In this document: piece after piece, positions 3,224 through 7,836 of the stretch
Position numbering within the stretch: the stretch's first letter is position 1
Layout of the letters: every line of letters starts with the position of its first letter
Program-made: the position numbers and the translations under genes
The notes under the pieces: model-generated
The model's database searches: none
Seen by the model: the letters and a program-made list of their open reading frames with translations, nothing else
Told to the model about the DNA's origin: nothing
DNA from: Microcaldota archaeon
GTDB lineage: Archaea; Micrarchaeota; Micrarchaeia; Anstonellales; Bilamarchaeaceae
DNA: 8,439 bases
Direction of reading: 5' to 3'
Assembly (NCBI GenBank): GCA_030666035.1
Contig: DAOUYQ010000030.1
Span: 1 to 8,439, forward strand

Positions 3224-3225
3224 AG

Positions 3226-3298
3226 TGAGCCCGCCCGGGATCGAACCGGGGATCTCTACCATGTCAAGGTAGCGTCTTAACCGCTGGACCACGGGCTC
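3226..3298 (-). tRNA. tRNA-Val (anticodon GAC)
   Basis: A 73-nt cloverleaf reads GUC and the other pyrimidine-ending valine codon. The acceptor stem GAGCCCG pairs perfectly with CGGGCTC, and the discriminator is A at 3226. The anticodon stem CTACC/GGTAG encloses TTGACAT, so the anticodon is GAC (3265-3263). The T stem CCCGG/CCGGG holds the loop TTCGATC. The D stem has three good pairs plus a C13-A22 mismatch, and GG is present in the D loop. The 5-nt variable loop is ordinary. CCA is not encoded: the trailer begins CTG. There is no intron in the anticodon loop. A TATA-like ATTAAAAAT on minus (3341-3333) sits about 39 nt upstream, consistent with a short leader removed by RNase P. Confidence 0.95.
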
Positions 3299-5745: not shown

Positions 5746-5751
5746 AGGTGG
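5746..5751 (+). promoter_or_regulatory. Ribosome-binding site deciding the gap start
   Basis: AGGTGG ends 5 nt before ATG 5757. It is a good archaeal Shine-Dalgarno core and includes the GTG at 5748, so the GTG is part of the binding site rather than the start codon. This places the initiator at ATG 5757, giving the family-typical MKVGISGFGRIGR. Confidence 0.6.
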
Positions 5752-5756
5752 GAATT

Positions 5757-6758
5757 ATGAAAGTAGGAATTTCAGGTTTTGGAAGGATAGGCAGGATGTT
5801 CCTGCGCGCTGCAATTGAGCAGGGTGCAATAGGGCGGGATTTTGATATCGTAATGATAAATAACAGGAGCGATGTTTTTGTAAACGCACACCTGTTCAAG
5901 TATGATTCTGCCCAGGGCAGGTTTCCGGGCACAGTAGAGGCCAAAGAAGGCACCCTCATTGTAGATGGCCATGAGATAAAGTGGACCCGGGAAACTGAGC
6001 CCTCCAAAATCCCCTGGGGCGAAAATGGAGTGGATGTAGTAGTAGAATGCACCGGCCGCTTCAGGAGCCGGGCAGACTGCCAGGCACACCTTGATGCTGG
6101 TGCAAAGCGCGTATTGATTTCTGCCCCAGGAAAAGACTGCCCAATGATTGTTCCCGGGGTAAATATGGAAACTGCAGACAGGAACGAGAAGATTTTCTCG
6201 CTTGCTTCCTGCACCACCAACTGCCTTGCACCCGTAATGAAGGTGCTCCAGGATAATTTTGGGGTGCAGAAAGGCTTCATGACTACAATCCATGCATACA
6301 CCAGCGACCAAAAACTCCTGGATGGCTCCCACAAGGATTTGAGGAGGGCCCGCGCAGCAGCAGTCTCCATAATCCCAACTTCCACAGGTGCAGCAAAAGC
6401 AATCGGAAAGGTAATTCCCGCACTTGAAGGGAAGATGGATGGGTTTGCCCTCCGTGTTCCTGTTGTTGATGGCTCAATTACAGACATTACCGTGGAAGTG
6501 GAAAAGCCCACAACCAAAGAAGAAGTAAATGCAAAGCTAAAAGAAGCAGCACTTGGCCCGCTCAAGGGAATTCTCCAGTACACTGAGGAGCCCCTTGTTT
6601 CTGTAGACATAATTGGGAACCCCCACTCTTCCATTGTGGACTCCGAATTCACAAACGTATCCGGAAACCTGGTAAAAGCTGTTTCCTGGTATGACAATGA
6701 GTATGGATATTCCAACAGGCTCATTGATTTTCTCAAATACATAAAAACCTGGCAATGA
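5757..6758 (+). CDS. gap: Class I glyceraldehyde-3-phosphate dehydrogenase, probably NADP-accepting
   Basis: A 333-residue cytosolic phosphorylating GAPDH that interconverts glyceraldehyde-3-phosphate and 1,3-bisphosphoglycerate. It belongs to the bacterial/eukaryotic class I family, not the class II enzyme typical of many archaea. The Rossmann motif is GFGRIGR at 7-13. The catalytic cysteine C152 lies in SCTTNCLAP, His179 in TTIHAYTSD, the phosphate-site stretch STGAAKA at 209-215, and WYDNEYGYSNR at 311-321. Cofactor-selecting positions are unusual: the aspartate that holds the NAD ribose is Asn36 (INNRSD where NDLTD is usual), and the Leu-Pro pair before HKDLRRAR is Gly190-Ser191, like the DASHRDL of chloroplast and cyanobacterial enzymes. 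These changes are known to favour NADP, so an anabolic or dual-cofactor enzyme is likely. It heads an operon; its stop overlaps the next start as ATGA. Confidence 0.95.
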   Translation: MKVGISGFGRIGRMFLRAAIEQGAIGRDFDIVMINNRSDVFVNAHLFKYDSAQGRFPGTVEAKEGTLIVDGHEIKWTRETEPSKIPWGENGVDVVVECTGRFRSRADCQAHLDAGAKRVLISAPGKDCPMIVPGVNMETADRNEKIFSLASCTTNCLAPVMKVLQDNFGVQKGFMTTIHAYTSDQKLLDGSHKDLRRARAAAVSIIPTSTGAAKAIGKVIPALEGKMDGFALRVPVVDGSITDITVEVEKPTTKEEVNAKLKEAALGPLKGILQYTEEPLVSVDIIGNPHSSIVDSEFTNVSGNLVKAVSWYDNEYGYSNRLIDFLKYIKTWQ

Positions 6759-7486
6759 AGGTGCATAATATAGAAGAAAAAACAAAACCCCGCCATATCG
6801 CTATCATTCCTGATGGAAATTTGTAAACCAAAACCATAAACAGGAGATGGGGCGAATTAAATGGCGTTTCCAGGCAGGAAGCCTATGAAACCGGCATACG
6901 CAAAATAAGCGATGTCCTTAGCTGGTGCATGGAAGAGGATGTCCCAATGCTTACAATGTGGGGCTTTTCCACAGAGAATTTCCAGCGTGATTCAAGTGAA
7001 ATATCCAGCCTCTTTGGGCTCTTTGAAAAAGACCTCCTCACAATGTTAACCCGCAAGGACGACCTGCTCAGGAAAGATGTGAGGATTCGCTTTTTGGGAA
7101 GGACTAACCTCCTCCCAAAGAAAATCTCAGATATGTTTGCAAAGGTAGAAGGGATGACCAGGGGGGCAAAAAAACATTCCCTCAACCTCCTCCTTGCCTA
7201 TGGAGGAAGAACCGAAATTGTGGATGCTGTAAATTCAATTATCAAGGAAGGCATAACCAAAGTGGACGAAGAAACCCTCAGCAGCCACATGTACACTGCG
7301 GGCCTTCCTGACCCTGAGCTGGTAATACGCACTTCAGGGGAAAAAAGGCTGAGCGGTTTCCTCCCATGGCAAACCGTTTACAGCGAAATTTACATAAGCG
7401 ATAAGCTCTGGCCGGATTTTTCCAGGGAAGATTTTGAAGACGCCCTGAAATTCTATGAAAAGACCCAAAGGCGATTTGGAAAATGA
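6755..7486 (+). CDS. uppS: Cis-prenyl (undecaprenyl-type) diphosphate synthase, interrupted by a 21-nt BHB intron
   Basis: This enzyme condenses isopentenyl diphosphate units in cis to make the polyprenyl carrier lipid for glycan assembly. Exon 1 (6755-6818) encodes RHIAIIPDGN; exon 2 (6840-7486) resumes RRWGELNGVSRQEAYETGI. Between them lie 21 nt with an in-frame TAA (6824-6826). Removing 6819-6839 restores the universal active-site motif DGNRRW (Asp20, Asn22, Arg23, Arg24, Trp25) and gives 236 residues, normal for the family. All later motifs are intact: MWGFSTENF, LLLAYGGRTEIVDAV, DPELVIRTSGEKRLSGFLPWQ and YSEIYI. There is no other frameshift or stop, which argues against decay. ATG 6755 overlaps the gap stop and the final TGA overlaps the next start (both ATGA), so translation is probably coupled. 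Starts downstream of the stop, such as 6929, would lack the catalytic aspartate. The family call is certain; splicing is inferred from structure. Confidence 0.92.
6807..6846 (+). other. Bulge-helix-bulge splicing motif around the uppS intron
   Basis: The outer helix UUCCUG (6807-6812) pairs with CAGGAG (6841-6846), five Watson-Crick pairs and one G-U. The 4-bp central helix is AUGG (6813-6816) with CCAU (6834-6837). The left 3-nt bulge is AAA (6817-6819) and the right 3-nt bulge is AAA (6838-6840), on opposite strands. The inner stem is UUU (6820-6822) with AAA (6831-6833), closing a loop of 8 nt. This is the canonical hBHBh' substrate of the archaeal tRNA splicing endonuclease, with the exact 3-4-3 geometry. 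Confidence 0.82.
6819..6839 (+). other. Predicted 21-nt archaeal mRNA intron in uppS
   Basis: The predicted intron runs from the third A of the left bulge to the second A of the right bulge, the canonical cut between bulge nucleotides 2 and 3. It holds the in-frame TAA. Joining 6818 to 6840 gives GGA AAC AGG AGA TGG, encoding G-N-R-R-W after the catalytic Asp. Because both bulges are AAA, the joined sequence is the same whichever symmetric cut is used. The length is in the range of small archaeal tRNA introns. Confidence 0.8.
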
Positions 7487-7836
7487 TTGTCGAGAATACA
7501 CAAAACCAGAAAAAAGTGGAGTGCCTAAAAGCACTTTCCCCATTTGAAAAGATGCGCGGGCTCATGTTCCGCAGGAAGATAGTTCCCATCCTTTTTGATT
7601 TCTCCAAAGACGGAATACATGCAATCCATTCCTTTTTCGTTGCTGCCCCGTTTTATGCAGTTTATATCTCCTCTTCAGGGGAAGTGGTGGATAAGTTCAG
7701 GGTAGTTCCCTCAGAAGCCCACAGGCAGAATTCCACCCCCGCCCGCTACCTCCTTGAAATTGATGAGGCGAGGGCTTCCTGGTTTAACAGAGGAGACAAG
7801 GTGATGCTCTATGCTAGGATGGAAAATGCTAACTGA
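7483..7836 (+). CDS. DUF192 family protein
   Basis: A 117-residue protein of the DUF192 family, small beta-rich proteins of unknown biochemical role that are widespread in bacteria and archaea. Family features are the opening LSPFEKMRGLMFRRK at 18-32, the central IHSFFVAAPFYAVYIS at 49-64 in place of the more usual FWMKNT-type motif, GEVVDKFRVVP at 68-78, and PARYLLEIDEA at 89-99 followed by GDKVML near the end. Many bacterial members have an N-terminal export signal; none is visible here, so it is probably cytosolic. Its ATG overlaps the uppS stop as ATGA, and its 3' end overlaps the ATPase start by 11 nt. It is therefore probably translated by coupling within the operon. Nothing in the sequence links it to a specific substrate. 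Confidence 0.85.
   Translation: MIVENTQNQKKVECLKALSPFEKMRGLMFRRKIVPILFDFSKDGIHAIHSFFVAAPFYAVYISSSGEVVDKFRVVPSEAHRQNSTPARYLLEIDEARASWFNRGDKVMLYARMENAN

What the first reader, a model, noticed from the sequence alone, without database searches (positions are those of the whole stretch)
6807..6846. A 21-nt bulge-helix-bulge intron splits the catalytic motif of an archaeal uppS gene
Seen directly: the gene is intact except for 21 nt, with in-frame TAA, between the codons for DGN and RRW of the universal DGNRRW motif. The flanks fold as UUCCUG/CAGGAG, then AUGG/CCAU, with AAA bulges of exactly 3 nt on opposite strands. That is the canonical 3-4-3 bulge-helix-bulge cut by archaeal tRNA splicing endonuclease. 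Predicted splicing gives GGA AAC AGG AGA TGG and a normal 236-aa enzyme. Established: a few archaeal protein genes, such as cbf5, have BHB introns, but these are rare and usually longer. I know of none in a cis-prenyltransferase. Nine Watson-Crick pairs in the dictated register make chance unlikely. The gene is single-copy within this window and sits in an operon, so loss of function is not the simplest reading.
Basis: partly seen in the sequence, partly recalled or inferred. Interest (0 to 1): 0.95.

Follow-up and report, generated by a model that had tools for sequence, protein, structure and literature searches.

The report
Tiny RNA-spliced intron in archaeal uppS
In a small uncultured archaeon, 21 extra letters with a stop codon interrupt the active-site code of a lipid-carrier enzyme gene; eleven relatives carry inserts of 15-69 letters at exactly the same point, most of them predicted to fold into the shape that the cell's tRNA-splicing enzyme recognises, so they are likely cut out of the RNA, which would make uppS one of very few archaeal protein genes known to be spliced.

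Summary
Bases 6819-6839 split codon N of DGNRRW in the only uppS found in this Micrarchaeota MAG; the minimum-energy fold of 6805-6848 is the described bulge-helix-bulge. Inserts sit at the identical point in 12 genomes: 11 of 40 uppS starts read in its family, plus one genome of another family of the class. They measure 15-69 nt; 7 of 12 are not multiples of three; unspliced, 12 of 12 meet an in-frame stop; cutting by the canonical BHB rule gives PDGNRRW in 12 of 12. Helices covary: Asp codon base 3 with an intron base (11 of 12), Pro codon base 3 with Arg codon base 1 by synonymous changes (12 of 12, against 9 of 29 intronless family members). The genome encodes a full-length homologue of the ARMAN-2 epsilon2 splicing endonuclease and RtcB, the latter cut by a contig end. 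Four of 12 BHBs are relaxed. No RNA data were available: splicing is inferred. A 2020 paper names cbf5 as the only other reported mRNA case. Why one codon recurrently holds introns is open.

The parts
6755..6818 (+). uppS exon 1 (MKVHNIEEKTKPRHIAIIPDG + first base of the N codon); its ATG overlaps the GAPDH stop
   Evidence: exon 1 ends at the canonical cut between bases 2 and 3 of the 5' bulge
6819..6839 (+). 21-nt BHB intron (predicted) with in-frame TAA (6824-6826)
6840..7486 (+). uppS exon 2 (last two bases of the N codon, RRW..., 214 codons, stop)
   Evidence: PF01255 7.9e-68, TIGR00055 uppS 196.8 bits over cut-off, both for 6842-7483
6807..6812 (+). outer helix, 5' strand UUCCUG (exon 1)
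   Evidence: 6808-6812 in the MFE; Pro codon base 3 covaries with Arg codon base 1
6841..6846 (+). outer helix, 3' strand CAGGAG (exon 2)
   Evidence: 6841-6845 in the MFE; the 4 inner pairs are kept in 12 of 12 carriers
6813..6816 (+). central 4-bp helix, 5' strand AUGG (exon 1, Asp-Gly codons)
6834..6837 (+). central 4-bp helix, 3' strand CCAU (intron)
   Evidence: U-A/C-G covariation in 11 of 12
6817..6819 (+). 5' bulge AAA, predicted cut 6818/6819
   Evidence: rule (between second and third bulge residue) as stated in PMC2738675
6838..6840 (+). 3' bulge AAA, predicted cut 6839/6840
6820..6823 (+). inner helix, 5' strand UUUG
6829..6832 (+). inner helix, 3' strand CAAA
5748..6758 (+). upstream gene in the likely operon: type I GAPDH; stop overlaps the uppS ATG
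   Evidence: TIGR01534 430.7 bits over cut-off
7483..7836 (+). downstream gene: DUF192 protein, overlaps the uppS end by 4 nt

Best explanation
Bases 6819-6839 interrupt the catalytic DGNRRW motif of uppS (cis-prenyltransferase) and are likely a bulge-helix-bulge intron, predicted to be excised from the pre-mRNA by the genome's epsilon2-type tRNA-splicing endonuclease, after which the exons would be joined by RtcB. Shown: position, computed fold, exact motif restoration by the canonical cut rule in 12 of 12 genomes, helix covariation, presence of the enzyme genes. Inferred: co-transcription with GAPDH and the DUF192 gene; folding of exon-intron complementarity into a BHB in the cell; cuts at 6818/6819 and 6839/6840; ligation; translation of a 236-aa enzyme; a linear or circular 21-mer by-product. 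The relaxed BHBs in some relatives would be tolerated because the epsilon2 enzyme has broad specificity. The intron is old at this site or re-acquired there; its function, if any, is not known, and I take it to be a near-neutral passenger kept tolerable by efficient splicing.
For: (1) Same-site inserts in 12 genomes: G000 21 nt, G002 20, G003 20, G004 20, G005 17, G011 41, G027 69, G030 35, G033 15, G034 33, G078 28 and G129 36. (2) The canonical rule yields PDGNRRW in 12 of 12; 12 of 12 meet an in-frame stop unspliced; 7 of 12 lengths are not multiples of three. (3) Outer CCNG/CNGG 4 bp in 12 of 12; central helix 4 pairs in 8, 3 in 3, 2 in 1. (4) Covariation: Asp base 3 with its intron partner is U-A in 5, C-G in 6, C.U mismatch in 1. 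Pro base 3 with Arg base 1 is paired in 12 of 12 carriers (11 of 11; G129), against 9 of 29 intronless family members and 13 of 33 of other families (73 starts). Strict exon helix 11 of 11 against 3 of 29 (Fisher 1.6e-7; against all 62 intronless starts 4.7e-8; relatedness ignored). (5) Shuffled introns with exons fixed reach the observed central pairing at rates of 0.008-0.034 in the eight full BHBs. (6) Exon 2 is under purifying selection: pN 0.08-0.22 and pS 0.64-0.82 in 15 of 15 pairs among the six genomes of the genus. (7) A 381-aa endonuclease, E 4e-125 over residues 7-381 to 4fz2/9w2k, the ARMAN-2 enzyme; PF01974 in 40 of 40 genomes searched and RtcB in 38 of 40, own included in both. 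(8) ARAGORN flags introns in 8 of 44 tRNA calls on overlapping stretches of genus-mate G005, with 23 nt in Trp and 22 nt in Tyr.
Against: No transcript, cleavage or protein evidence. By MFE, G027, G034 and G129 do not form the central helix and G011 forms it with three pairs. Even among the eight full cases the MFE bulges are exactly 3 and 3 nt in the expected register only in G000 and G005; in the others the 5' side is off by one or the register shifts. G034 has only 2 of 4 central pairs, no better than chance (0.29), and G011 and G027 are weak alone (0.08, 0.15). The covariation rests on few independent lineages. The distribution is patchy: 7 parsimony changes, at least 3 forced, on the uppS tree, awkward for a simple single gain. 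G004 has a second, partial uppS at a contig edge (C51:6-308, C-terminal half only), so a second copy cannot be excluded there. The own MAG is 81.75% complete, so a second uppS could be missing, and its RtcB gene is cut by a contig end. A scan of about 99% of G005 found no other convincing protein intron, so a general mRNA-splicing habit is not shown.
Confidence: 0.92

Rival explanations
1. Programmed translational bypassing: ribosomes hop over the insert from a take-off codon to a matching landing codon, helped by the hairpin, as in T4 gene 60 (recalled).
For: Short inserts of varied length, most with hairpins, and a stop; in G000, G003 and G027 the take-off codon AAT matches the landing codon AAC (same Asn tRNA).
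Against: In 9 of 12 genomes neither take-off/landing pair that I tested matches (AAT->AAC in 3 of 12; GGN->GGN in 1 of 12, G027). Pairing of the two exon flanks with each other, and two cut points that fit the BHB rule in 12 of 12, are not expected from bypassing.
Confidence: 0.03
2. Pseudogene: uppS is being lost in these genomes and the insert is a disabling mutation.
For: An in-frame stop in 12 of 12 carriers; patchy distribution.
Against: Exon 2 is conserved with pN well below pS in 15 of 15 genus pairs; the insert falls at one point in 12 of 12; uppS is present in 143 of 146 genomes sampled across the phylum; it is the only copy found in 11 of 12 carriers; covariation.
Confidence: 0.03
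3. Initiation downstream: a shortened UppS made from a start inside exon 2 (first ATG 6929) is the real product.
For: An open 185-aa ORF from ATG 6929.
Against: It would lack DGNRRW, whose Asp is catalytic in cis-prenyltransferases (recalled). The exon 1 peptide HIAIIPDG and the start of exon 2 stay recognisable in carriers, and the exons around the insert are constrained to pair.
Confidence: 0.02

Closest known systems
cbf5 (archaeal RNA pseudouridine synthase) BHB introns of Sulfolobales and Desulfurococcales (Yokobori 2009, PMC2738675; Watanabe 2002 seen only as a citation)
   Same: [quoted passage not shown] exon-intron pairing; cut between second and third bulge residue; same site across relatives; variable interior; relaxed BHBs in many; loss in some lineages
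   Different: Different gene (uppS), different phylum (Micrarchaeota), epsilon2-type endonuclease instead of the crenarchaeal hetero-tetramer; intron within the catalytic-motif codon; present in a minority of the family and in one distant family; splicing shown by cDNA for cbf5, not here
Archaeal tRNA BHB introns, incl. 22-23 nt introns flagged in tRNA-Tyr/Trp of genus-mate G005
   Same: Size class, BHB architecture (recalled for tRNA), same predicted enzyme
   Different: Host RNA is an mRNA, so no tRNA body helps recognition
HVO_1309 5'-UTR BHB intron of Haloferax volcanii (PMC7714728, passages)
   Same: BHB element in an mRNA cut by the tRNA-splicing endonuclease
   Different: Lies in a 5' UTR, not in the coding sequence; 46 nt; other enzyme type

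Membership tests
Archaeal BHB intron | Two 3-nt bulges on opposite strands separated by a 4-bp helix, at the exon-intron borders | tested here: met
   Own sequence. Across carriers in the register of the cut rule: 8 of 12 full, 3 with one mismatch, 1 with two; MFE folds agree less exactly
Archaeal BHB intron | Cutting between bulge bases 2 and 3 restores the mature product | tested here: met
   PDGNRRW in 12 of 12
Archaeal BHB intron | Helices conserved by compensatory change | tested here: met
   Two covarying pairs; relatedness not corrected
Archaeal BHB intron | Host encodes a tRNA-splicing endonuclease and a ligase | tested here: met
   own RtcB gene seen in part (contig end)
Archaeal BHB intron | RNA is cleaved and exons joined in vivo | not testable with these tools
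   No transcript data held
Pre-mRNA BHB intron (cbf5 type) | Interrupts the coding sequence of a conserved protein gene and would disrupt it unspliced | tested here: met
   12 of 12
Intein | In-frame protein insert with self-splicing domains | tested here: not met
   15-69 nt with stops in 12 of 12
Group I / group II intron | Hundreds of nt with a catalytic core (recalled) | tested here: not met
   Length 15-69 nt; no covariance-model search was run

The most novel reading that the evidence does not exclude
The DGN codon of uppS is a natural proto-splice site where BHB introns have been gained repeatedly and independently, by reverse splicing with the tRNA-splicing endonuclease and RtcB followed by return to DNA, so that uppS in Micrarchaeota catches archaeal mRNA introns in the act of birth and precise loss (G001 retains the carriers' junction sequence exactly, without the intron).
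Probability: 0.3. Interest if true: 0.9.

Novelty: new member of a known kind. Interest (0 to 1): 0.82.

Why it matters
A 2020 paper states that cbf5 was the only additional BHB intron reported in an archaeal mRNA (PMC7714728, passage seen), and a 2009 paper calls for tools to find more and for experimental confirmation (PMC2738675). A second recurrently interrupted coding gene, in DPANN archaea that carry the structurally characterised broad-specificity epsilon2 endonuclease, would link that enzyme's relaxed specificity to mRNA splicing and makes it testable in vitro. Introns of 15-21 nt in the active-site codon of an enzyme present in 143 of 146 sampled genomes mean that gene callers may truncate or miss such genes in MAGs, and the one-site, many-lineage pattern with an intronless genus-mate makes intron gain and loss in archaea open to direct study.

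Tried and rejected
Genome-wide scan for further BHB introns: 74 stretches of G005 (1,261,909 bases with overlaps, about 99% of the genome) gave 22,277 strict BHB geometries. 78 survived a coding filter; the short ones that I looked at by eye appear to be gene-gene junctions of operons (I did not go through all 78). A filter against downstream start codons left 6 of 15,583 geometries with L up to 80, none convincing to me. The coding filter also rejects uppS itself, because exon 1 is short, so the scan is insensitive and does not show that uppS is alone.

G005 against G003 (59 stretches, 916,261 bases with overlaps, of about 1.2 Mb): two split alignments were listed, neither a convincing intron. 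A listing of in-frame stops in alignments looked dominated by upstream and antisense extensions, its output was cut, and it led nowhere. Introns shared by both genomes would not show in this comparison.

Translational bypassing, pseudogene and downstream start: see rivals. Stop-codon read-through alone fails because 7 of 12 inserts shift the frame. Recent horizontal transfer from the family to G129 is not supported: family f1 is one side of a branch (99/96) and G129 lies outside it, although G129 is a long branch that meets another.

Pattern search of 301 class genomes: 11 genomes matched; 9 are known carriers, G141 is an intronless uppS and the G191 match is not in a uppS frame; the reversed control pattern matched in 2 genomes. 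The pattern excludes G027, G034 and G129.

Not done: reading the uppS starts of the class genomes outside the order, except G129 and G141. They were only screened by the profile start, and that table was capped ('more matches are not listed'). G115 and G162 are cut near contig ends; G179 runs off its contig end, so its motif is not held.

Full report
What is there. The window is contig C8 of a 950-kb, 81.75% complete MAG. uppS starts at 6755, overlapping the stop of a type I GAPDH gene, and is followed by an overlapping DUF192 gene. Its frame is broken by TAA at 6824-6826, and the rest of the protein continues in the same frame after 21 nt. The MFE fold of 6805-6848 shows a 5-bp outer helix, a 3-nt bulge on each strand, a 4-bp central helix and a 4-bp inner helix with one extra A.

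More than chance. For this sequence alone the fold energy is moderately unusual (z -2.35). The decisive test is comparative. In 59 genomes (own included; 55 with uppS) and then 84 genomes of the order (78 with uppS), several HMM matches began at profile position 4-5 instead of 1. Reading 73 of those 78 starts showed 11 with an insert and 62 without; the other five (G043, G052, G055, G081, G082), read later, have none. So 11 of 78 starts in the order carry an insert: 11 of 40 in family f1 and 0 of 38 in the other families. The inserts lie at one point, within the N codon: 5 of 6 genomes of the window's genus, and G011, G027, G030, G033, G034 and G078. A phylum-wide sample of 146 genomes (143 with uppS; match table capped) flagged one more outside the order, G129, of another family in the class; its insert of 36 nt sits at the same base. 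A pattern search in 301 class genomes re-found nine carriers and no new one.

Rule test. If each insert is removed by the canonical rule (cut after the second base of each bulge), 12 of 12 give P-D-G-N-R-R-W. Without removal 12 of 12 run into a stop, and 7 of 12 are frameshifting.

Helix test. The four inner pairs of the outer helix (both strands exonic) are kept in 12 of 12. The central helix (exon with intron) has 4 of 4 pairs in G000, G002-G005, G030 (one G-U), G033 and G078, 3 of 4 in G011, G027 and G129, and 2 of 4 in G034. Asp codon base 3 and its intron partner are U-A in five and C-G in six carriers, and C.U in G129. Pro codon base 3 and Arg codon base 1 are T/A in eight and G/C in four carriers; both are synonymous changes, so the pairing has no reason in the protein. 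In intronless genes of the same family the same two bases pair in only 9 of 29 (13 of 33 in the other families read), and the strict exon helix exists in 3 of 29 against 11 of 11 (Fisher 1.6e-7; relatedness not corrected). Against my reading: MFE folds of G027, G034 and G129 do not form the central helix, G011's forms three pairs of it, and among the eight full cases exact 3-and-3 bulges in the expected register appear in the MFE only for G000 and G005. Pairing in G034 is no better than chance (0.29), and weak alone in G011 and G027 (0.08, 0.15).

Machinery. The genome encodes a 381-aa endonuclease (L193:4911-6056) that aligns over residues 7-381 to the ARMAN-2 enzyme 4fz2/9w2k at 4e-125. The paper on that structure (PMC12397907; abstract and passages seen) reports broad substrate specificity through an ARMAN-specific loop. 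PF01974 is in 40 of 40 genomes searched and RtcB in 38 of 40, own included; the own RtcB gene runs off a contig. Genus-mate G005 has ARAGORN-flagged introns in 8 of 44 tRNA calls, those of Trp and Tyr being 23 and 22 nt, so an enzyme for introns of about 20 nt is expected to be active.

Function of the gene. Exon 2 evolves under purifying selection in the genus (pN 0.08-0.22, pS 0.64-0.82, 15 pairs, one member intronless), and only one uppS was found in 11 of the 12 carriers; G004 has an additional C-terminal fragment at a contig edge. A dead gene is therefore unlikely. Bypassing lacks matching take-off and landing codons in 9 of 12.

History. On an uppS tree of 44 rows the label needs 7 changes, at least 3 forced by well-supported branches. 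G001 has the carriers' junction sequence without the insert, which looks like a precise loss. G129's gene falls outside family f1 (long branch). Either one ancient intron was lost many times or this site gains introns recurrently; the data do not decide.

Is it alone? The scan of about 99% of G005 and a comparison with 916,261 bases of G003 found no other convincing protein intron, but the scan would have missed uppS itself.

Literature. Searches (PMC open-licence papers only) listed no title or abstract that reports a BHB intron in uppS or in a Micrarchaeota protein gene; most listed papers were not opened. PMC7714728 (passages) names cbf5 as the only other reported mRNA case and adds a 5'-UTR case in Haloferax. 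PMC2738675 (section 8 part 1, section 9, passages) describes cbf5 introns with the same logic, relaxed BHBs, and gain and loss, and mentions predicted introns in other protein genes that I could not look up. PMC6125680 (passages) reports group I introns, all in rRNA genes, some in Micrarchaeota. Passages of PMC7994747, PMC13149111 and PMC11291895 held nothing on introns inside archaeal coding sequences. Subscription papers were not searchable, so priority is not proven.

Verdict. A real, recurrent insert with the anatomy of a BHB micro-intron in uppS; splicing inferred with high confidence, not shown.

Noticed in passing
G000:C101 (RtcB), also G004, G012, G017, G019, G041, G044, G051: RtcB matches split into profile 1-50/51 and about 41-426 (42-259 in G000) within one open frame of 811-991 aa: an intein-sized in-frame insert at about the same place in 8 of 40 genomes.
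   Followed up: no
L193:2296-2781 (G000:C76): A second, 161-aa endonuclease-like protein (PF01974, 33 bits) encoded near the epsilon2 enzyme; similar small second matches occur in many relatives. Its role beside an epsilon2 enzyme is unclear.
   Followed up: partly
window 5748-6758: The GAPDH gene is of the type I family (TIGR01534 over cut-off), whereas archaea usually have type II (recalled).
   Followed up: no
L066 (G001), uppS start: Genus-mate without the intron but with CCTGATGGAAACAGGAGATGG, the same as the joined exons of carriers such as G005: looks like a precise intron loss.
   Followed up: partly
G004:C51:6-308: A second, partial uppS (profile 116-219) at a contig edge in the MAG of G004, 85% identical to the window protein: a strain variant or duplicate.
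   Followed up: no
window 3225-3298: tRNA-Val(gac) on the minus strand; no intron reported by ARAGORN.
   Followed up: no
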